Shown here piece after piece: positions 1 through 30,297 of a stretch of 64,000 bases of DNA. Below the pieces are notes generated by a model. That model did no database searches. It was not told where the DNA came from and worked only from the letters and a program-made list of their open reading frames with translations. Source of the stretch: Helicobacter pylori (GTDB taxonomy: Bacteria > Campylobacterota > Campylobacteria > Campylobacterales > Helicobacteraceae); contig NZ_LT635477.1 in the NCBI RefSeq assembly GCF_900120335.1, positions 1,488,001 through 1,552,000 of the forward strand, in the 5' to 3' direction. Position numbers and translations under genes: made by a program. Within the stretch, counting starts at the first letter, position 1, and each line of letters opens with the position of its first letter.

Positions 1-44
1 GCTATGGCATTATGTTTGATCTTATTAATAGCAGAGGAGTGGCA

Positions 45-731
45 ATGGGATACACAAGCAAATTAGCTTTAAAGATTTGTTTGGTAGGTTTGTGTTTATT
101 TAGCACCCTTAGTGCAGAACACCTTGAGCAAAAAGGGAATTATATTTATAAGGGAGAGGAGGCTTATAATAATAAGGAATATGAGCGAGCGGCTTCTTTT
201 TATAAGAGCGCTATTAAAAATGGTGAGTCGCTTGCTTATGTTCTTTTGGGGATCATGTATGAAAATGGTAGGGGTGTACCTAAAGATTACAAGAAAGCGG
301 TTGAATATTTCCAAAAAGCGGTTGATAACGATATACCTAGAGGGTATAACAATTTGGGCGTGATGTATAAAGAGGGTAAGGGAGTTCCTAAAGATGAAAA
401 GAAAGCGGTTGAGTATTTTAGAATAGCTACAGAGAAAGGTTATACTAACGCTTATATCAACTTAGGCATCATGTATATGGAGGGCAGGGGAGTTCCAAGT
501 AACTATGCAAAAGCGACAGAATATTTTAGAAAAGCGATGCATAAGGGCAATGTGGAAGCTTATATTCTCCTAGGGGATATTTATTATAGCGGGAATGATC
601 AATTGGGTATTGAGCCGGACAAAGATAAGGCTGTTGTCTATTATAAAATGGCGGCTGATATAAGTTCTTCTAGTGCTTATGAAGGGTTGTCAGAGTCTTA
701 TCAGGTATGGGTTAGGCGTAGAAAAAGATAA
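45..731 (+). CDS. Sel1-repeat secreted protein (HcpX-like, C-terminus altered)
   Basis: A secreted solenoid protein of the Helicobacter cysteine-rich/Sel1 family, corresponding in position to HP1117. The ATG at 45 is preferred over the ATG at 12 because it has an AGAGGAG ribosome site and opens directly into a signal peptide ending around LSAEH. About five Sel1 units follow, with the pattern LGIMYENGRGVPKDYKKAVEY repeated at roughly 36-residue spacing; unlike HcpC it has almost no repeat cysteines. An extra G near 704-705 shifts the frame and gives a stop at 729-731. The original frame continues after the stop to 813-815 and encodes a plausible Sel1 tail (KAEEYMQKACDF), because the A7 run at 730-736 is one base short and restores the frame. 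The function in H. pylori is unknown; the family is exported and immunogenic. The family call is strong. Confidence 0.85.
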   Translation: MGYTSKLALKICLVGLCLFSTLSAEHLEQKGNYIYKGEEAYNNKEYERAASFYKSAIKNGESLAYVLLGIMYENGRGVPKDYKKAVEYFQKAVDNDIPRGYNNLGVMYKEGKGVPKDEKKAVEYFRIATEKGYTNAYINLGIMYMEGRGVPSNYAKATEYFRKAMHKGNVEAYILLGDIYYSGNDQLGIEPDKDKAVVYYKMAADISSSSAYEGLSESYQVWVRRRKR

Positions 732-840
732 AAAAAGGCTGAAGAATACATGCAAAAAGCATGCGATTTTGACATTGATAAAAATTGTAAGAAAAGGAAT
801 ACTTCAAGCCGATAACTCTCAAACTTGGGCTTGATTCAAG

Positions 841-1024: not shown

Positions 1025-1120
1025 ATTTACAAACTCCAAGCAATAGCGAGCGGATTTCATAAGCTTTTTAAAAACGACGCTAAGATCGCTGAAAGCCTAA
1101 AACCCGCTATTACGAAAAAC

Positions 1121-3604
1121 TTGAGCCAAGGGTTAGCGACCACTTTGAGCGGAGCGTTAAAATACCAGTGGACTAAATTCACGCTAGGGACTTTATACCG
1201 CAACGCGCCCGATCGCATTTTAGGGATTAAACTCCCCAAAGCCTTGAATGAAGCCACCGCAGGCGCGGCCTTAAAGTATCACCTAAAAAGAGCGTTAGAA
1301 AGAAGCCACTCTATAAGCGATTTTAGTAAGAATTTAGAATTGAGCGCCAAAAACGCTAAATTTAGCAACAACACGCTTAAAATCATTGAAGAGCTTACTA
1401 ACGGAATCAAGCAAGCCAGCGAAGAAATCAAAGAAAAAGCGTTTGATTTTTCTAATAAAAAACTCACTAACGAGCAAATCAAAGAGCTATTAAATAACGC
1501 AGAAATCCCTACAAGCGGGAGAGACGCTATCACTTTTGGAGTGAATAACCTAAACCCTGAAATGGTTGAATTCCTGCACAAAAACAACAAAAAAATGATT
1601 ATAGAAAAAGCCTCTAACAAAGAATTAGAACTTTTAAAAGACGCTAACTTTAAACACCCTGAAAACATAAGATCGAGTTTAGATCATGATGCTATCGCTC
1701 ACATACTCAAAAGGCATGGCGTTAATTCTGTCAATGTTAAAAATGGAGAAAGCCCTATCACTTACGAGGATATAGCGAATTATAGATATATCGTTAATAA
1801 CGCTGATGCCATTCTTAGGACTATAGACAAATACAATCAAGAAGCTATCACGGCGTTTAAACAAATTAACGGCTATACGGTAGTGGTAGAGCAAGCGGTC
1901 AATAAGAAAAATGAATTAGTTTTAAAAACGATGTATAAGAACAATGGGAGTTATAAAAATAATGATGTTTATAAAGAATTTTCAAGCACCTCACTCAACG
2001 CTAATGCGAAGGTGCCCCATGGGTTGAGTTCCCATGGTGGTGCTACAGATAATCCTACACCAAAACCGCTAAATAGTCAAGAGGATTTATTAAAAAGAAC
2101 AGAAAATTCAAACGAAACCACACCAAAACCTACAAATTTATCCCCACTAGAGCAAGCCAACGCCGAAAAGTTAGCGAAGTTAGAAAGCGAAGCCAAAGAA
2201 AGCGAACAGGAATTTTTAAAAGCTAAAGAGCAAGAATTAAAGCGTAAAGAAGCGTTAAAAAAGAAATTAGAACACGAGCGAGGGAATGCGGGCAATATTG
2301 AAAGCCAGACTAAAATAGAAGTAGGAGAAGATATACCCGCATCAATCCAAGCGCAGATCCCCAAAAGCCGAGTGAGGTTGAACGAACGAGAGATTTACGA
2401 TCTGGATTATGCGATCGTGAAAGCTAAAGATCTAAAACCAAGCTTTACCACAGGCGGGGCACAAAAGAGAACGGACATGAACGAAGAACAGATTAAAAGC
2501 ATAGCGGAGGATTTTGATCCTAAAAAGATATTTGGGAGCGGAGGTTTTGAGGATTTACCAATCATTCTACATGATGGGCAAGTGATCGCAGGGAACCACC
2601 GCATCCAAGGCATGCTAAACTTCACGCCAAAAAGCAGATACATTTACAACAAAGCGATCAAGGAATACTATCATATAGACTTAGCGCCGGACGAATTGTT
2701 AGTAAGAGTGCCAAACAAGCGCCTAGACAACACCGAGATCAACAATTTAGCGGCTTCAAGCAATCAAGGACGCTTTAACAGCGAGAGCGATCATGCAATA
2801 GCGGTTTTAAGCCATTACGAAGCGAAATTGAAAGAATTAGAAAAGAAATTAGACGCTGATAGCATCTACTCCTTAAAAAACATCGTCGCTAAAAACCTTA
2901 ATTTTGACAAAGCCACCCACCCTAATGTGGGCGATAGTAATTTAGCGCTTTTAATGTTCAACATGCCAAGGACTAAAACGCAAGGGATAGAATTACTCAA
3001 CCGCTGGCAAAAAGAGTTTTCTAACGACATTAAAAGCTATGAAAAGGTTAAAAAAATGTTTGTAGATAACGCCGGAAGCTTTCACAATCTCATCCACGAC
3101 ATGAACTTCCCTAACGTGAGTTTAAACGCTTATTTAAGCGATATTATGGATCGCAGTTTTGCCAATTTAAAGAATTACCCAAGCACGAGCGAGAGCTTGA
3201 AAGACTTGAGCGAGAAATTCTATAAAACGAGTTCTTTAGACATGTTTGAAAAGAGCGATCAAAGCGCGAGCGATATCAGCGAGATTTTAGGAGGTGCGAT
3301 CGCGCGATTTGCGAGGTTTGATGATCCTTCTAAGGCGTTATTTGAAGCGTTAAAGAGTGATAACATTAAAAAAGGCTTGAAAGAGTTTAAAATAGCAGAT
3401 ATTACCAAAGACATGTTTAACCCTGATAGTAAGGAATTTAAGGACATTGACATTTACGACTTCACGCATTACCTTTTAATGGTCAATAGAGAGCCGAATG
3501 AAAACAATCCCGTATTAAACCGCTTAGTTCAAGCCGTTAAAGACATGCAAAAAGAAAGCGAGAAAGGGATAAAAAAACAAAAACTTGAAAAAGTCAAGGA
3601 GTAA
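1121..3604 (+). CDS. Polyvalent-type protein: PBECR-like nuclease plus ParB/DdrB-like domain (DUF3519 family), N-terminus probably lost
   Basis: An 827-residue protein from a TTG start; coding-like sequence continues in frame back to about 1025, where a TAA blocks it, so the natural N-terminus is probably missing. Around residues 185-290 there is a segment with HILKRHG and following beta-rich sequence. It resembles the phage-encoded barnase/EndoU/colicin E5-D/RelE-like nuclease (PBECR) domains. A charged coiled linker follows (residues about 330-400). Residues about 425-640 contain QVIAGNHRIQGM and NVGDSNLALLMFNMP, like ParB/DdrB-type domains. Such multidomain proteins are carried by conjugative elements and phages and are thought to protect the incoming element. 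It matches the position of HP1116 and looks like a relic of a plasticity-zone element. Domain calls are from motif memory and were not searched. Confidence 0.65.
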   Translation: MSQGLATTLSGALKYQWTKFTLGTLYRNAPDRILGIKLPKALNEATAGAALKYHLKRALERSHSISDFSKNLELSAKNAKFSNNTLKIIEELTNGIKQASEEIKEKAFDFSNKKLTNEQIKELLNNAEIPTSGRDAITFGVNNLNPEMVEFLHKNNKKMIIEKASNKELELLKDANFKHPENIRSSLDHDAIAHILKRHGVNSVNVKNGESPITYEDIANYRYIVNNADAILRTIDKYNQEAITAFKQINGYTVVVEQAVNKKNELVLKTMYKNNGSYKNNDVYKEFSSTSLNANAKVPHGLSSHGGATDNPTPKPLNSQEDLLKRTENSNETTPKPTNLSPLEQANAEKLAKLESEAKESEQEFLKAKEQELKRKEALKKKLEHERGNAGNIESQTKIEVGEDIPASIQAQIPKSRVRLNEREIYDLDYAIVKAKDLKPSFTTGGAQKRTDMNEEQIKSIAEDFDPKKIFGSGGFEDLPIILHDGQVIAGNHRIQGMLNFTPKSRYIYNKAIKEYYHIDLAPDELLVRVPNKRLDNTEINNLAASSNQGRFNSESDHAIAVLSHYEAKLKELEKKLDADSIYSLKNIVAKNLNFDKATHPNVGDSNLALLMFNMPRTKTQGIELLNRWQKEFSNDIKSYEKVKKMFVDNAGSFHNLIHDMNFPNVSLNAYLSDIMDRSFANLKNYPSTSESLKDLSEKFYKTSSLDMFEKSDQSASDISEILGGAIARFARFDDPSKALFEALKSDNIKKGLKEFKIADITKDMFNPDSKEFKDIDIYDFTHYLLMVNREPNENNPVLNRLVQAVKDMQKESEKGIKKQKLEKVKE

Positions 3605-3613
3605 ATTAAAAAA

Positions 3614-4035
3614 ATGAAAGAAATGAAACCATTTGACATTATCTTAGAAGCGAGAAGGATACTTGATAAACGCATCAAAACGCTTTTACTTTTTTTCTGG
3701 TCTTAATATGGTGTGTTTGGGCGTGAGTTTTACCAATAAGCCTCATTTGTGGCTTTGGTTTTTAGTGGTAGGTTGTTATTTAGTTTATGAGTGGCAAAAG
3801 AAACAGAAAGATTTTCAAAAAGCTAAAAGTTTGAAATTTGACAGCGTTAGCGAATTAGAAAAGGATTTGAACATGGAAGTAACTAATGATGAATGGGATA
3901 CCATTAAAAAACTTAATAAAAAGTTAAAAATGTTTTTTAATGTATGCTTTTTATGTTTTTTTATTAATGAGTTATCTCATTGTGGGGGTGCGCGTTACTC
4001 TCTCTCTTATAGATAATCATGGAGTGTTAAAATGA
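3614..4035 (+). pseudogene. Small two-membrane-segment protein, broken by two homopolymer frameshifts
   Basis: The ATG at 3614 lies just after the preceding stop and begins MKEMKPFDIILEARRILDKR. The frame then ends early because an A4 run at 3677-3680 has one base too many. The next frame carries the body (FYFFSGLNMVCLGVSF, then a membrane segment LWLWFLVVGCYLVYEW and a charged middle). A second +1 shift in the T7 run at about 3956-3962 diverts the end to a stop at 4014-4016. Restoring it gives a second membrane segment (LLMSYLIVGVRVTLSLID) whose stop TGA overlaps the next ATG as ATGA. That overlap is good evidence for the original reading frame. The function is unknown; it probably belonged to the same element as its neighbours. 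Confidence 0.7.
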
Positions 4036-4649
4036 ATTACCCTAATTTGCCTAATAGCGCGCTAGAAATAACCGAGCAGCCTGGAGTGAAAGAAATCACT
4101 AACGAGCTTTTAAAGCAATTACAGAACGCTTTAAAAGGTAATCATCTTTTCACTGAGCAAGTGGAACTGAGCCTTAAAGGGATCGTTAGGATTTTAGAAG
4201 TGCTTTTGAGTTTGGATTTTTTCAAGAATGCGAACGAGATTGATAGCAGTTTGAGAAATTCCATTGAGTGGCTGACTAACGCCGGCGAGAGCTTGAAATT
4301 AAAAATGAAAGAATACGAGCGCTTTTTCAATGATTTCAATACAAGCATGCACGCTAACGAGCAAGAAGTAACCAACACCTTAAACGCTAACACCGAGAAC
4401 ATCAAAAGCGAAATTAAAAAGCTAGAAAATCAATTGATAGAAGAGGCGAGAATGCTTTTAACGAGCTATCAAATCTTTTTAAACCAAGCCAGAGATAACG
4501 CTAATCATCAAATCACAGAAAACAAAACCCAAAGCCTTGAAGCGATTACACAAGCGAAAAACAACGCTAACAACGAAATAAGCACGAATAAAACGCAAGC
4601 AATCAATAACATTAACGAAGCTAAAAAACGATCATTATCAAAACATTGA
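4032..4649 (+). CDS. Coiled-coil protein of the element remnant
   Basis: A 205-residue protein with no recognisable enzymatic motif. Residues about 1-95 form a helical domain and the remainder is a long coiled coil. The C-terminus carries near-repeats of about 15 residues (ITENKTQSLEAITQAKNNAN, then STNKTQAINNINEAKK). The gene starts by ATGA overlap with the reconstructed end of the upstream membrane-protein pseudogene, so the two were once co-translated. The protein stops abruptly after NEAKKRSLSKH, just before the uvrB promoter; the repeat is cut off, suggesting that the right end of the element was deleted here. This is HP1115 by position. Function unknown. Confidence 0.6.
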   Translation: MNYPNLPNSALEITEQPGVKEITNELLKQLQNALKGNHLFTEQVELSLKGIVRILEVLLSLDFFKNANEIDSSLRNSIEWLTNAGESLKLKMKEYERFFNDFNTSMHANEQEVTNTLNANTENIKSEIKKLENQLIEEARMLLTSYQIFLNQARDNANHQITENKTQSLEAITQAKNNANNEISTNKTQAINNINEAKKRSLSKH

Positions 4650-4686
4650 TTTTTTTGAGATTGAATAAGGCGTGTTAAAAACCTAC

Positions 4687-4692: not shown

Positions 4693-4718
4693 ACCCCTAA
4701 AAAATGCGAGTTTTAAAG

Positions 4719-6695
4719 ATGCCTTTATTTGATTTAAAAAGCCCTTATCCACCAGCAGGCGATCAGCCCCAAGCCATAGAAGCTTTAACGAAAAGCTTGA
4801 AAAATAACAACCATTATCAAACTCTAGTGGGGGTTACAGGGAGCGGTAAGACTTACACGATGGCTAATACCATCGCTCAAACCAATAAACCCACTTTGAT
4901 CATGAGCCATAATAAGACCTTATGCGCGCAGCTTTATAGCGAGTTTAAGGCGTTTTTCCCACACAATAGGGTGGAGTATTTTATCTCCCACTTTGATTAC
5001 TACCAGCCTGAGAGCTATATCCCTAGGAGGGATTTATTCATTGAAAAAGACAGCTCTATTAACGATGACTTGGAGCGTTTGAGATTGAGTGCGACCACTT
5101 CGCTTTTAGGTTATGATGATGTGATTGTGATAGCGAGCGTTTCGGCTAATTATGGTTTGGGTAACCCTGAAGAATATCTAAAAGTCATGGAAAAAATCAA
5201 AGTGGGCGAGAAGCGCGCTTACAAGAACTTTTTATTAAAGCTAGTGGAAATGGGTTATAGCCGTAATGAAGTGGTGTTTGATAGGGGGAGCTTTAGAGCG
5301 ACTGGGGAATGCGTGGATATTTTCCCCGCTTATAATGACGCTGAATTTATTAGAATTGAATTTTTTGGCGATGAGATAGAAAGGATTGCTGTCTTTGACG
5401 CCTTAGAAAGAAATGAAATCAAGCGTTTGGATTCTGTCATGCTTTATGCGGCCAGTCAGTTTGCCGTAGGGAGTGAGAGGTTGAATTTAGCCATTAAAAG
5501 CATTGAAGATGAACTCGCTTTAAGATTGAAATTTTTTAAAGAGCAGGATAAAATGCTTGAATACAACCGCCTCAAACAACGCACCGAGCATGATTTAGAA
5601 ATGATTAGCGCGACCGGTGTGTGTAAGGGCATTGAAAATTACGCGCGCCATTTTACAGGTAAAGCCCCTAACGAAACGCCTTTTTGCTTGTTTGATTATT
5701 TAGGGATATTTGAGCGGGAGTTTTTAGTCATTGTGGATGAAAGCCATGTGAGTTTGCCGCAATTTGGGGGGATGTATGCAGGAGATATGAGCAGGAAAAG
5801 CGTTTTAGTGGAATATGGTTTTAGATTGCCTAGCGCTTTAGACAACCGCCCTTTAAAGTTTGATGAATTTATCCATAAAAATTGCCAGTTCCTTTTTGTG
5901 TCCGCTACGCCCAATAAGCTAGAATTAGAGCTTTCTCAAAAGAATGTCGCTGAGCAAATCATTCGCCCTACAGGGCTTTTAGACCCCAAATTTGAAGTGC
6001 GAGACAGCGATAAGCAAGTCCAGGATTTATTTGATGAAATCAAGTCAGTGGTGGCTAGAGGTGAAAGGGTGCTCATCACCACGCTCACTAAAAAAATGGC
6101 AGAAGAATTGTGTAAATATTATGCTGAATGGGGCTTGAAGGTGCGTTACATGCATAGTGAAATTGATGCGATTGAAAGGAATCACATTATCCGCTCTTTA
6201 AGGCTTAAGGAATTTGATGTTTTAATAGGGATCAATCTTTTAAGAGAGGGGTTGGATTTGCCTGAAGTTTCTTTAGTAGCGATCATGGATGCGGATAAAG
6301 AAGGGTTTTTAAGGAGCGAAACAAGCCTCATTCAAACCATGGGGCGAGCCGCTAGAAACGCTAATGGTAAGGTTTTATTATACGCTAAAAAGATCACTCA
6401 AAGCATGCAAAAAGCCTTTGAGATCACGAGTTACAGGCGCGCCAAGCAAGAAGAGTTTAATAAAATCCATAACATCACCCCCAAAACCGTTACGCGCGCT
6501 TTAGAAGAGGAGTTGAAATTAAGAGACGATGAAATCAAAATCGCTAAAGCTTTAAAAAAGGACAAGATGCCTAAAAGTGAAAGGGAAAAAATCATTAAAG
6601 AATTGGATAAAAAAATGCGAGAGTGCGCGAAAAATTTGGATTTTGAAGAAGCGATGCGTTTGAGAGACGAAATCACTCAATTAAGAACGCTTTAA
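4719..6695 (+). CDS. uvrB: Excinuclease ABC subunit B
   Basis: UvrB is the DNA-damage-verifying helicase-like subunit of nucleotide excision repair; it receives the lesion from UvrA and recruits UvrC. The start at 4719 ([20 protein letters not shown]) gives 658 residues, the normal length. A GTG or ATG further upstream (4704) would place the start too close to the -10 box. Visible motifs are Walker A ([10 protein letters not shown]), the beta-hairpin region (YYQPESYIP), DEAD-like VIVDESHVS, helicase motifs [19 protein letters not shown] and [12 protein letters not shown], the QTMGRAARN motif VI and a C-terminal UVR domain ([12 protein letters not shown]) that contacts UvrC. It is transcribed alone, between an element remnant and a convergent outer membrane protein gene. 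Confidence 0.98.
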
Positions 6696-9284: not shown

Positions 9285-10229
9285 CTATACTTTAGCTTCT
9301 TCTCTGCGTTGCAAGTATTCCCAACGCTCATTCACATCTTTTTGCAATTCTTCAATGATGTGTTCGTTTTCTTTTTTGAAAAGGTGTTTGAAACGCTTTT
9401 GAGCCCCTAAATAATCCCTTACAGGAATGATATTTCTTGGGCGGTAAGTGATTTTCAATTCCCTGCCATTAAAGACTTCAAACAAGGGGAACATCAAGCT
9501 ATCCACAGCCATATCCGCTAATTCAATGGTCTTATTGGAATCAAATTTCCATTCAGTCGTGCATGGGCTAAGAGCGTTGATAAAGCAAGGCCCTTCAGTG
9601 TCTAGCGCGGTTTTAATCTTTTTATTCATGTCTTTCCATTTGTTAGGAGAGAGTTGCGCTACATAAGGGACTCCATGGCTTGCCATGATATTGACGATGT
9701 CTTTTTTCTTTTCTTTTTTACCAAAGCTAACCGATCCCGCTGGCGTGGTAGAAGTGCTAGCCCCTAATGGCGTAGAACCGCTTCTTTGACCGCCTGTATT
9801 GGCGTAGTTTTCATTATCCAAGCAGATGTAAGTCATGTCATGCCCTCTTTCCATGCAACCGCTGATGAATTGAAAACCAATATCATAACTAGCCCCATCG
9901 CCTCCAAACGCCACGAATTTCGGTCTTTGACCTTGATAGCGACCCTTATTCACTAAAGCCTTATACATCGCTTCCACCCCCGAAATAGCGGTAGAGCCGT
10001 TTTCAAAACCGATATGAATCCAAGGCACATCCCATGAAGTGTGCGGGTACACAGCCGAGCATACCTCTAAACAACCGGTAGAATTGCCTAAAACAATAGG
10101 CCCATCTACAGCGTTTAAAACTTCGCGCACAATGATGCCATGCCCACAACCGGGACAAAGCAAGTGCGAGCCTTGAAATTTCTCAGCGCTTTGGCTAAAA
10201 CCTTTGAGTGTTTTGACTTCTTTTACCAT
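9285..10229 (-). CDS. porB: Pyruvate:ferredoxin oxidoreductase beta subunit
   Basis: The thiamine-diphosphate subunit of the four-subunit pyruvate oxidoreductase, which makes acetyl-CoA and CO2 from pyruvate and passes electrons to flavodoxin in H. pylori. The TPP site is visible as FGGDGASYDIGFQFISG followed by NENYANTGGQRSGSTP; the N-terminal LLCPGCGHG carries the cysteines typical of beta subunits. It is the last gene of the porC-porD-porA-porB operon, 12 bases after porA with an AAGGAAA ribosome site. POR is essential in H. pylori, is oxygen sensitive, and replaces pyruvate dehydrogenase. Confidence 0.97.
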   Translation of the reverse strand: MVKEVKTLKGFSQSAEKFQGSHLLCPGCGHGIIVREVLNAVDGPIVLGNSTGCLEVCSAVYPHTSWDVPWIHIGFENGSTAISGVEAMYKALVNKGRYQGQRPKFVAFGGDGASYDIGFQFISGCMERGHDMTYICLDNENYANTGGQRSGSTPLGASTSTTPAGSVSFGKKEKKKDIVNIMASHGVPYVAQLSPNKWKDMNKKIKTALDTEGPCFINALSPCTTEWKFDSNKTIELADMAVDSLMFPLFEVFNGRELKITYRPRNIIPVRDYLGAQKRFKHLFKKENEHIIEELQKDVNERWEYLQRREEAKV

Positions 10230-26815: not shown

Positions 26816-28351
26816 TTAAAAAAGCCCCTTAAGCCCTTTTTCAAGCTTTTCTTTGAGCTTATCATCTTTAAATAAATGATCTAAACCTTTTTTAAGGGTG
26901 TCGTTTTTCAAGATTTCTTTCAAGCCTTGTTGCAGGTTTTGCTGAATGGTTTTTTCGTTTAAAATGAGGGAAAATTTTGGCTGGTGCATGTTGCCTTGAA
27001 GTTTCATTTTAAAAATGAATTTTAAGATTTCCGCATCCATGAGCATGTCCATTTGTTTGGTGTTTAAATCCAACAAGCCGTTATGGATTTTCAATTGGGT
27101 TTTGGGGCTTTTTAAACTCAAATCAGAGAGCAGGCGTTGCTGGTTGATTTGGCTTACCAGATTGGCATCGTGATAAATTTCTTTAGTAATATCAAAACGA
27201 GAAATGGAATAAAGGAAATCGCTGAATGCATTTTTGAGGAATCTTGCGTTTTTGAGATTGGCTTTCAACACGCCTTGCTTAGAGATAAGGTCATAATCCA
27301 AGTTAGCGTCTGCAATGGATTGGAAAAATTTAGGGTAATGGAATAAGTCTAGGGCTTTTAAAGTGGAAATATTGGAAAAACGGGCTTTCAAATCTTTATT
27401 TAAAAGCGTGAAATCCAACGCGCCGTCTAGTAAATTTGAATGGCCATTGACTTTTAAGAGTTTGGGGCTTTGCTCTATATCGCCTTTTAAAGTCAAGCTC
27501 CCTTTTAAGGGGTGGTTGATCATGTTTTGGAGTTTGGCTAGGTTGGATATTTCTAAAGTGTAGGGGGCGTTGAGTTTTAAAACAGAGAAAAGATATTCGC
27601 TTTTTAGGGCTGTGAAATTAACTAAAGGGCTAGTTAGGGTGGTATCGCTGATGGCTTTGTTTTCTTTAAAATCGCTTGAGTGCGAGAGGTTGAAGATAAG
27701 CGTGTCTTTAAGGTTTAAATGAAAGATTTGATTGATTAGGGCGTTATTGATTAAAGCGTCATTAGCTGTTAGAGTCAAATGCCCTTCTAAGGGCTTTAGA
27801 GAGTTAAAATCCGCTTGTAAGGATACTTTTGCGTTCGCATAAGCGGGGCGATTGATTAAATAAAGCAAATCTTCTAAATTGGCGTCTTTTGCGTTCAAAC
27901 TTAAGTGAGAAAGTTTGAAATCATCTAAAAGGGCGTTATAGGCAGTGTGGGATTGAGCCGCATTAGAGACGCCTTGAATCACAAGGGCTTTTCTATGCCC
28001 TTTAATGTTCCCAGAAGTAACAATAGCCCCCCTTAAAGGGTAGGGTATCAAATCCTTGAAAGAGCGTAAATTTTTAATATCTATATAGTAATCCAAATTT
28101 ACGCTTTGCTTTAAAAGTGAAAAATCCCCCTTAAGAATGAGCGTGGAATCGTCGTTGGCTTGAGCTTTGAAATCCAAAGAGTTGAATCCCAATTTAAAGG
28201 TTTTAACGCTCAAATAACGCTCGTTCGGGTTGATTTTTTTCTCTATATACGAAGCGATGATTTTATTCCCCCATTCTGTAAAAAGGATAAGATAGGTTGT
28301 TAAAAGGCCGATTAAAAGAAGCGCAAGTAGGGTATAAAGAAATTTTTTCAT
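26816..28351 (-). CDS. AsmA-like envelope protein
   Basis: A 511-residue protein with one N-terminal membrane anchor (LLALLLIGLLTTYLILF) and a long periplasmic body of repeated beta-strand segments, such as LILKGDFSLLKQSVNLDYYI and LTLKGDIEQSPKLLKVNG. That pattern is typical of AsmA/TamB/DUF748-type proteins that bridge the inner and outer membranes and move phospholipid. The C-terminus has LQGNMHQPKFSLILNEK, then an amphipathic tail. Corresponds to HP0358. The family call is by pattern only. Confidence 0.65.
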   Translation of the reverse strand: MKKFLYTLLALLLIGLLTTYLILFTEWGNKIIASYIEKKINPNERYLSVKTFKLGFNSLDFKAQANDDSTLILKGDFSLLKQSVNLDYYIDIKNLRSFKDLIPYPLRGAIVTSGNIKGHRKALVIQGVSNAAQSHTAYNALLDDFKLSHLSLNAKDANLEDLLYLINRPAYANAKVSLQADFNSLKPLEGHLTLTANDALINNALINQIFHLNLKDTLIFNLSHSSDFKENKAISDTTLTSPLVNFTALKSEYLFSVLKLNAPYTLEISNLAKLQNMINHPLKGSLTLKGDIEQSPKLLKVNGHSNLLDGALDFTLLNKDLKARFSNISTLKALDLFHYPKFFQSIADANLDYDLISKQGVLKANLKNARFLKNAFSDFLYSISRFDITKEIYHDANLVSQINQQRLLSDLSLKSPKTQLKIHNGLLDLNTKQMDMLMDAEILKFIFKMKLQGNMHQPKFSLILNEKTIQQNLQQGLKEILKNDTLKKGLDHLFKDDKLKEKLEKGLKGLF

Positions 28352-28457
28352 GTTTGTTTGTCCTTGAAATAAATTGAATGGAATATATTAGCTTGTTTTG
28401 TCATGGTTTCTAATATTTTTTATAAAGCCTTAACGGAAGGTTTGAATTGAGATAATA

Positions 28458-28809
28458 AAAAATTGAGCGCTCAAAACCCCAATTTTTCCAACAACACGCT
28501 TAAAATTATTGAAAGACTCAATAGTGGCGTAAAGCTTAGCAGTAGGCGATTTAGGTAACGGAAACAAGAATTTTTATAGCGGTAGGAATTTGACAGATTT
28601 TAGAGATGCTAGGCCACTACCTAGCACTCTTATTTAAAGAGATACTATCTCAAAAAGATTTAACAAGTCAAGAGGTTTTATTAAAAAGAACAGAAAATTT
28701 AAACGAATTGACCAAAGAGCCTACACATTTAAGCCCCCTAGAGCAAGCCAACGCCAAAAAGCTTGCGAAATTACAAAGCGAACAACTACAAAGCGAACAA
28801 GATTTTTAA
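28458..28809 (+). pseudogene. Second, heavily degraded copy of the polyvalent-protein gene
   Basis: Several blocks match the gene at 1121-3604 in order. Near 28465-28530, LSAQNPNFSNNTLKIIERL matches LSAKNAKFSNNTLKIIEEL. A middle block reads GNKNFYSGRNLTDFRDAR. At 28672-28809, VLLKRTENLNELTKEPTHLS and PLEQANAKKLAKLQSEQ match DLLKRTENSNETTPKPTNLS and PLEQANAEKLAKLESE. Stops and deletions separate the blocks; only a 67-codon piece remains open (28606-28809, possibly annotated as HP0359). It sits just before the tRNA-Ile/Ala pair. Confidence 0.75.
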
Positions 28810-28978
28810 AATATACAAGGCAAACAAAAATCTAAAAAACTCAATCCAACTTGATCTTTGAATTTTAATTAAAAAGACTTGCGGTGTTAAAAAGGATAAT
28901 CTAATCGCTCAAGAATTTCCTAAACAAACATGATTAACACGATGATGAAAAGAGTTGTATCAAAAAAGAGAAATACAA

Positions 28979-29262: not shown

Positions 29263-30297
29263 ATGGCGTTATTATTCACAGGGGCGTGCGGGTATATAGG
29301 CTCACATACCGCAAGGGCGTTTTTAGAAAAAACCAAAGAAAACATCATTATTATAGATGACTTAAGCACCGGTTTTTTAGAGCATATCAAAGCGTTAGAG
29401 CGTTACTACCCTAATAGGGTTGCGTTTATTCAAGCGAATTTGAATGAAACCCACAAATTAGACGCCTTTTTGAATAAGCAACAGCTAAAAGATCCTATTG
29501 AAGCTGTCTTGCATTTTGGGGCTAAAATCTCAGTAGAAGAATCCATGCGCTTGCCTTTAGAATACTACACTAACAACACGCTTAACACTTTAGAGCTTGT
29601 CAAACTTTGCTTAAAACATGCAATCAAGCGTTTTATTTTTTCTTCCACGGCCGTGGTTTATGGCGAGTCTGGTTCAAGCTTGAATGAAGAAAGCCCCTTA
29701 AACCCCATTAATCCTTATGGAGCGTCTAAAATGATGAGCGAAAGGATTTTGTTAGACGCTTCTAAAGTAGCGGATTTCAATTGCGTTATTTTGCGCTATT
29801 TCAATGTGGCTGGGGCATGCATGCACAATGATTATACCACCCCCTACACTTTAGGACAGCGCACGCTCAACGCCACGCATTTGATCAAAATCGCATGCGA
29901 ATGCGCGGTGGGTAAAAGGAAAAAAATGGGGATTTTTGGCACTAATTACCCCACGAGAGACGGCACTTGCATTAGGGATTATATCCATGTAGATGATTTG
30001 GCTAACGCGCATTTAGCGAGCTATCACACTCTTTTAGAAAAAAATAAGAGCGAGATCTATAATGTCGGCTACAATCAAGGCCATAGCGTGAAAGAAGTGA
30101 TAGAAAAGGTTAAAGAAATCTCAAATAAGGATTTTTTAGTGGAAATTTTAGACAAACGACAGGGCGATCCAGCAAGCCTTATTGCCAATAATTCTAAAAT
30201 CCTACAAAACACCCCTTTCAAACCCCTTTATAACAACCTAGATACGATTATCAAAAGCGCTCTAGATTGGGAAGAACACCTTTTAAGATTTCAATAA
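29263..30297 (+). CDS. galE: UDP-glucose 4-epimerase
   Basis: Interconverts UDP-glucose and UDP-galactose, supplying galactose for lipopolysaccharide and Lewis antigens. The 344-residue extended SDR shows FTGACGYIGSHTARAF, the catalytic YGASK in NPINPYGASKMMSERI, and TRDGTCIRDYIHVDDLANAH, which is diagnostic of GalE. AAAGGGG precedes the ATG. It ends with a 7-base overlap with the convergent truA gene. Confidence 0.96.
   Translation: MALLFTGACGYIGSHTARAFLEKTKENIIIIDDLSTGFLEHIKALERYYPNRVAFIQANLNETHKLDAFLNKQQLKDPIEAVLHFGAKISVEESMRLPLEYYTNNTLNTLELVKLCLKHAIKRFIFSSTAVVYGESGSSLNEESPLNPINPYGASKMMSERILLDASKVADFNCVILRYFNVAGACMHNDYTTPYTLGQRTLNATHLIKIACECAVGKRKKMGIFGTNYPTRDGTCIRDYIHVDDLANAHLASYHTLLEKNKSEIYNVGYNQGHSVKEVIEKVKEISNKDFLVEILDKRQGDPASLIANNSKILQNTPFKPLYNNLDTIIKSALDWEEHLLRFQ

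What the first reader, a model, noticed from the sequence alone, without database searches (positions are those of the whole stretch)
1025..4660. Relic of an integrative element carrying a toxin-type polyvalent protein between HP1117 and uvrB
Seen: an 827-codon gene without a natural N-terminus, containing HILKRHG and AGNHRIQGM motifs, a twice-frameshifted membrane gene ending in ATGA overlap with a coiled-coil gene that is cut off. Known: polyvalent proteins combining PBECR-type nuclease and ParB/DdrB-type domains are carried by phages and conjugative elements and delivered with the DNA. Inference: these three genes are one operon from an H. pylori plasticity-zone (TnPZ/tfs-type) element whose nuclease-bearing gene has outlived the rest. 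The still-open 2.5 kb frame suggests either recent truncation or selection for a cellular use.
Basis: partly seen in the sequence, partly recalled or inferred. Interest (0 to 1): 0.72.

Follow-up and report, generated by a model that had tools for sequence, protein, structure and literature searches.

The report
Phage-gene relic, duplicated and phage-refreshed
This stretch of the Helicobacter pylori chromosome is the leftover tail half of a virus-particle gene, kept at two fixed chromosomal sites that copy each other and swap sequence with related phages; the gene itself is already known, but the data show how a 'dead' phage gene can keep looking intact.

Summary
An 827-codon open frame lacking its N-terminal half, a twice-frameshifted membrane gene and a cut-off coiled-coil gene lie between HP1117 and uvrB. 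The domain call is right too (PBECR3, DUF3519, ddrB-ParB). The source is wrong: this is not a TnPZ/tfs element but a piece of a Schmidvirus-type H. pylori prophage, covering the C-terminal half of the ~200-kDa polyvalent virion protein (the known HP1116/jhp1044) plus the next genes. Window 1043-4460 recurs, 100% identical over 3,418 bp, at the HP0488 locus 0.98 Mb away. Both relic sites recur in ten other genomes with nested, site-specific junctions. Within a genome the copies are often ~100% identical. Between genomes they are about four times more diverged at silent sites than their neighbours and interleave with phage copies on a tree. One relic carries a block 94% identical to a different phage lineage. 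Frames stay open without ribosome-binding site or promoter excess, so I favour refreshment by recombination over a host function. The gene, the repeat, inversions between the copies and prophage splitting at this gene are already published; the quantification and the direct phage-to-relic replacement are added here.

The parts
12..731 (+). HP1117/hcpX-type Sel1-repeat gene, conserved left neighbour of locus U
   Evidence: Pfam Sel1 2.7e-38; same neighbour in ten other genomes
1043..4460 (+). 3,418-bp segment repeated 100% identically, in the same orientation, at the HP0488 locus (L009:10542-13959)
   Evidence: blastn
1043..1043 (.). left phage/chromosome junction of locus U (equivalent to phage locus L082:5923), shared by the U copies of other genomes
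   Evidence: junction mapping against five phages
1121..3604 (+). 827-codon open frame: C-terminal half of the phage polyvalent virion protein (HP1116/jhp1044; KHP30 ORF11, phiHP33 'JHP1044 mosaic', HPy1R gp12)
1439..2050 (+). variable cassette (about residues 107-310), replaced by at least four dissimilar alleles in relatives while both flanks are conserved
   Evidence: alignment, Pfam of other alleles
1610..1963 (+). PBECR3 (predicted RNase-fold) domain, residues 164-281, with HILKRHG
   Evidence: PF18812 1.5e-18
1811..2146 (+). DUF3519 domain, residues 231-342
   Evidence: PF12033 4.4e-31
2384..2713 (+). ddrB-like ParB domain, residues 422-531, with AGNHRIQGM
   Evidence: PF18763 5.7e-31; model pLDDT 80, top four PDB hits ParB
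3612..4035 (+). membrane-protein pseudogene, two frameshifts, last frame ends in ATGA overlap with the next gene
   Evidence: three-frame reading and comparison with relatives
4032..4649 (+). coiled-coil ('tail fiber') gene cut after about 200 of 426 residues
   Evidence: phrog_6438 2.7e-107, residues 1-200; 82% to the HPy1R tail fiber protein
4704..6695 (+). uvrB (HP1114), conserved right neighbour of locus U
   Evidence: same neighbour in other genomes

Best explanation
The segment is one of two fixed chromosomal relics of a Schmidvirus-type prophage: the C-terminal half of the polyvalent virion-protein gene plus the next genes. The relic at HP0488 (locus H) is slightly longer and encloses the one at HP1116 (locus U, this window), so U probably arose as a copy of H before these strains diverged. 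Because each relic is several kilobases of DNA homologous to infecting phages and to the other relic, homologous recombination works on it in three ways. (1) It homogenises H and U, giving the 3,418-bp perfect repeat here. (2) It occasionally crosses over between H and U, or with a prophage, inverting chromosome segments or leaving half-prophages joined to HP0487. (3) It replaces relic sequence with phage alleles, including the nuclease-type cassette and the ParB-containing block. This replacement, rather than expression in the host, would keep the frame open. Shown: phage origin, shared junctions, perfect repeat, flank exchange, mixed tree, one direct phage-to-relic replacement. Inferred: direction of copying, replacement as the cause of the open frame, absence of a host function.
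For: Phage homology 87-92% with phiHP33, DeM53M and KHP30. Perfect 3,418-bp repeat. H and U found with site-specific junctions in other genomes. Within-genome H/U identity 99.9-100% over 2.7-3.4 kb in 6 genomes, 97.6-99.1% over shorter tracts in 2, but 82-91% in 4. Flanks exchanged in G016. Half-prophages joined to HP0487 in L088 and L094. Relic dS 0.52-0.72 against 0.10-0.20 for four neighbouring genes. Relic and phage copies interleave, and copies group by genome, not by site. omega 0.074 for relics and 0.084 for phages; private N/S 34/42 against 60/59. The G024 relic at U carries a block 94% identical over 1,451 bp to the G026 prophage but only 38% identical in protein to other relics. No Shine-Dalgarno before any start in the first 300 residues and no promoter excess.
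Against: Apart from G024, recent phage donors were hardly seen: only one relic shares a tract of at least 120 bp at 97% with the phage loci compared, so refreshment leans on the diversity of the phage pool. No stop occurs in the 1,440-bp C-block in any relic that covers it, which also fits purifying selection in the host. Only about a dozen H. pylori-like genomes were available.
Confidence: 0.7

Rival explanations
1. Domesticated host gene: H. pylori expresses the truncated protein (ParB-like plus RNase-type domain) for its own use, for example against phages, and purifying selection in the host keeps the frame.
For: No stop in the C-block of all relics that cover it, while at 0.01 substitutions per site about 0.5 stops per lineage would be expected without constraint; omega 0.074; relics present in all H. 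pylori-like genomes examined although only one carries an intact Schmidvirus head gene. Published microarray data list HP1116 among genes associated with iron-deficiency strains (PMC5576686).
Against: No ribosome-binding site, and no ATG in the first 147 residues; no promoter excess; relic and phage alleles interleave; the cut-off coiled-coil gene is about as constrained (omega 0.114); whole blocks are swapped for 38%-identical phage versions; some copies are broken (G018, G021).
Confidence: 0.2
2. Recently decayed prophage: one recent integration and truncation between HP1117 and uvrB, still open because too little time has passed.
For: Open 2.5-kb frame; high identity to phages.
Against: The same junctions occur in the other genomes, whose neighbouring genes differ by dS 0.10-0.20, and no other half of the gene, no phage integrase and no head gene beyond a scrap are found in this genome.
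Confidence: 0.05
3. Part of a TnPZ/tfs integrative conjugative element.
For: A TnPZ does insert into HP0488 in strain Shi470 (PMC2731543), and type IV secretion genes lie about 7 kb from locus H in this genome.
Against: All close relatives are phages; none in plasmids; conserved chromosomal genes border both relics; HP0488 is a target of TnPZ, not a part of it.
Confidence: 0.02

Closest known systems
HP1116 / jhp1044 (and paralog HP0488 / jhp0440) of H. pylori
   Same: Same site between HP1117 and uvrB, same paralog pair sharing an identical repeat (1,430 bp in 26695; PMC3046158); recombination between them reported to invert about 590 kb within a patient (PMC6531487).
   Different: Here the perfect repeat is longer (3,418 bp) and includes the pseudogene and part of the cut-off gene; both copies lie in the same orientation with parental flanks.
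Polyvalent proteins of phages (2017, PMC5512222)
   Same: That paper names jhp1044 and its PBECR plus DdrB-ParB domains, mosaic across Helicobacter (pro)phages.
   Different: The window copy is only the C-terminal half and sits in a relic, not in a phage.
Schmidvirus phage gene: KHP30 ORF11, phiHP33 'JHP1044 mosaic', HPy1R gp12
   Same: 72-92% identical over the whole ORF; HPy1R gp12 was found in virions with 64 unique peptides, and gp13 (coiled-coil gene) with 21 (PMC9319048).
   Different: Phage genes are full length, 1,593-1,985 codons, in an intact phage genome.
Prophage splitting at the DUF3519 gene (H. pylori Genome Project, PMC11321410)
   Same: Reports that prophages often break at a gene homologous to a bacterial gene; L088 and L094 are such joints.
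   Different: The passages read treat the homolog as a bacterial gene; here the bacterial copy itself is phage-derived, at two fixed sites, and exchanges alleles with phages.
TnPZ / tfs elements
   Same: Also mobile elements of H. pylori; HP0488 is one of their insertion sites (PMC2731543).
   Different: No genes shared with the relic were found.

Membership tests
Polyvalent protein (phage type) | several conflict-type domains in one polypeptide, including PBECR and DdrB-ParB | tested here: met
   PF18812, PF12033, PF18763 above cut-offs; ParB-like fold, weak E-value
Polyvalent protein (phage type) | encoded by a phage or conjugative element | tested here: met
   133 phage records, none in plasmids
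Polyvalent protein (phage type) | carried in the particle and delivered with the DNA | not testable with these tools
   ortholog HPy1R gp12 found in virions by mass spectrometry (PMC9319048); delivery into the cell not shown
Polyvalent protein (phage type) | PBECR domain is an active RNase | not testable with these tools
   prediction only; HILKRHG is present, fold of this region not resolved (pLDDT about 35)
Schmidvirus prophage | gene order: polyvalent gene, (membrane gene), coiled-coil gene | tested here: met
   Pt11468_1 matches 3596-4628 in one piece; G024_H and L083 have the same order
Schmidvirus prophage | integrase and head genes present | tested here: not met
   no Schmidvirus integrase in the genome, head gene only as a 36-residue scrap: a relic, not a prophage
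TnPZ/tfs element | xerT recombinase and type IV secretion genes within the element | tested here: not met
   relic bordered by HP1117 and uvrB with no such genes between
TnPZ/tfs element | AAGAATG target repeats at the ends | not tested
   the heptanucleotide was not searched for

The most novel reading that the evidence does not exclude
The two relics are kept because they act as a homology trap: a stored, constantly refreshed piece of phage DNA through which resident prophages are split and inactivated by recombination, a recombination-based defence with chromosome inversion as a side effect.
Probability: 0.1. Interest if true: 0.7.

Novelty: already known. Interest (0 to 1): 0.38.

Why it matters
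It corrects the origin of the finding and gives a caution: an open reading frame with low dN/dS in a bacterial chromosome need not mean a working host gene, because a relic can borrow intact sequence from phages. It also explains in one picture why H. pylori chromosomes invert between HP0488 and HP1116 and why its prophages break at one gene, and makes both testable by removing two short segments.

Tried and rejected
Plasmid search with the ORF: no match. Search of genome contigs gave no confirmed relative, perhaps because near genomes are left out. AlphaFold of all 827 residues failed (pLDDT 40.5) and was not searched; only residues 410-560 were usable. Sequence search of solved structures: no relative. 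NCBIfam: no match for the ORF. Rfam: none. Search for tracts from recent phage donors: almost none. Relaxed constraint in relics judged by private mutations: no difference from phages. The primary phiHP33 paper is not held. TnPZ origin and recent truncation were considered and rejected.

Full report
What is there. The window lies in an H. pylori-type chromosome of 1,667,712 bp (G000:C1:1488001-1552000). Between the HP1117-type Sel1 gene (12-731) and uvrB (4704-6695) lie an 827-codon ORF (1121-3604, frame open from about 1025), a membrane-protein pseudogene read in three frames that ends in an ATGA overlap, and a coiled-coil gene (4032-4649).

Identity. The ORF has PBECR3 (residues 164-281), DUF3519 (231-342) and ddrB-ParB (422-531). 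Its relatives are tailed phages of Helicobacter: 133 phage records, the best at 92% (phiHP33), 90% (DeM53M) and 87% (KHP30), and no plasmid. In the phages it is the C-terminal half of one gene of 1,593-1,985 codons. The coiled-coil gene matches phage 'tail fiber' genes at up to 83% but stops near residue 200 of 426. In phage HPy1R the two corresponding proteins, gp12 (199.6 kDa, DdrB-ParB) and gp13, were found in phage particles with 64 and 21 unique peptides (PMC9319048). So this is the tail half of a virion-carried polyvalent protein gene and its neighbours. A model of residues 410-560 (pLDDT 80) has ParB structures as its four best PDB matches, with high probability for the first but a weak E-value (0.037).

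A second, identical copy. Window 1043-4460 occurs again at L009:10542-13959 (C1:513541-516958, the HP0488 locus), 100% identical over 3,418 bp including the pseudogene and part of the cut-off gene. That locus has HP0486/HP0487-type outer-membrane genes on the left and an HP0490-type channel gene on the right. I call it H and the window site U. The gene names HP0486, HP0487, HP0490 and HP1117 are my assignments from the literature's order and my own knowledge of strain 26695; the sequences were compared between the genomes here, not with that strain.

Other genomes. In the genus search 32 of 34 genomes have some match. Ten H. pylori-like genomes besides this one show relic sequence at both H and U, some split or shortened. 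Mapped on phages, the left junction of H is always near L082:5847-5850 and that of U near 5923; the right end of U is near 9745-9749 in most, and that of H reaches 10130 or has been shortened. U's segment is therefore nested inside H's, which suggests that U was copied from H before these strains diverged (inference). An intact Schmidvirus head gene is present in only one of the H. pylori-like genomes (G026), and this genome has neither the phage integrase nor the head gene beyond a scrap.

Exchange between the sites. H and U are 99.9-100% identical over 2.7-3.4 kb in G000, G018, G022, G025, G026 and G028, 97.6-99.1% over shorter tracts in G016 and (U against a second copy) G001, but 82-91% in G021, G023, G024 and G027. 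On a tree, copies group by genome, not by site. In G016 the flanks are exchanged (HP1117-relic-kch and HP0487-relic-uvrB), as a crossover between inverted copies would give. Published work reports the repeat (PMC3046158) and a 590-kb inversion by HP0488-HP1116 recombination within a patient (PMC6531487).

Exchange with phages. Relics and phage genes interleave on the tree. Silent divergence between genomes is 0.52-0.72 in the relic but 0.10-0.20 in uvrB, HP1117, HP0487 and kch, so the sites are inherited vertically while their content comes from an older pool. Direct case: the U relic of G024, with its normal flanks, holds a C-block 94% identical over 1,451 bp to the G026 prophage and only 38% identical in protein to other relics. 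Viral contigs L088 and L094 run from HP0486-HP0487 through the relic into the right half of a prophage, matching the report that prophages often break at this gene (PMC11321410). The central cassette (residues about 107-310) has at least four dissimilar alleles between conserved flanks, with PBECR1, PBECR2-like (below cut-off), PBECR3 or only DUF3519 matches, in line with the mosaicism described for jhp1044 (PMC5512222).

Why the frame is open. None of the relics covering residues 336-815 has a stop there, while about 0.5 stops per lineage are expected at only 0.01 substitutions per site without constraint. omega is 0.074 for relics and 0.084 for phages, and private mutations do not differ (34 N/42 S against 60 N/59 S, p 0.47). 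Yet there is no ATG before residue 148, no Shine-Dalgarno near the start and no promoter excess, and the truncated coiled-coil gene is about as constrained (omega 0.114). Small scraps of the same gene elsewhere, perhaps too short to be refreshed, are decayed (window 28454-28842; C1:941737). I therefore favour refreshment from phages over a host function, without excluding the latter.

Verdict. Observation confirmed; interpretation partly supported: right about a relic and its domains, wrong about the TnPZ source and about recent truncation. The object is already known as HP1116/jhp1044.

Noticed in passing
window 28454-28842: A short decayed fragment of the same phage gene (parts of residues 70-110 and 314-374, with stop codons) between a minus-strand ORF (26816-28351) and a galE-like ORF (29263-30297).
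   Followed up: partly
G000:C1:941737-941940 (L007, L074): A third, decayed scrap of the gene; similar scraps at about 0.75-0.96 Mb in G023, G025, G026, G027 and G028.
   Followed up: partly
G000:C1:205-306 (L109): A 36-residue scrap of the phage head gene with a stop codon, the only trace of the structural genes found in this genome.
   Followed up: no
L009:649-3128 (C1:503.6-506.1 kb): Type IV secretion genes (VirB4/CagE-type and VirB2-type matches) about 7 kb from locus H, probably a tfs/TnPZ element near the HP0488 relic.
   Followed up: partly
window 660-834: The HP1117-type gene appears frameshifted near its end: other genomes match only to residue 231 of the window ORF, and a second frame runs on to 834.
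   Followed up: no
G026:C1:166000-183000 (L110): An H. pylori prophage whose polyvalent protein has a strongly diverged C-terminal block (37-38% identity), a second phage lineage also seen in the G024 relic.
   Followed up: partly
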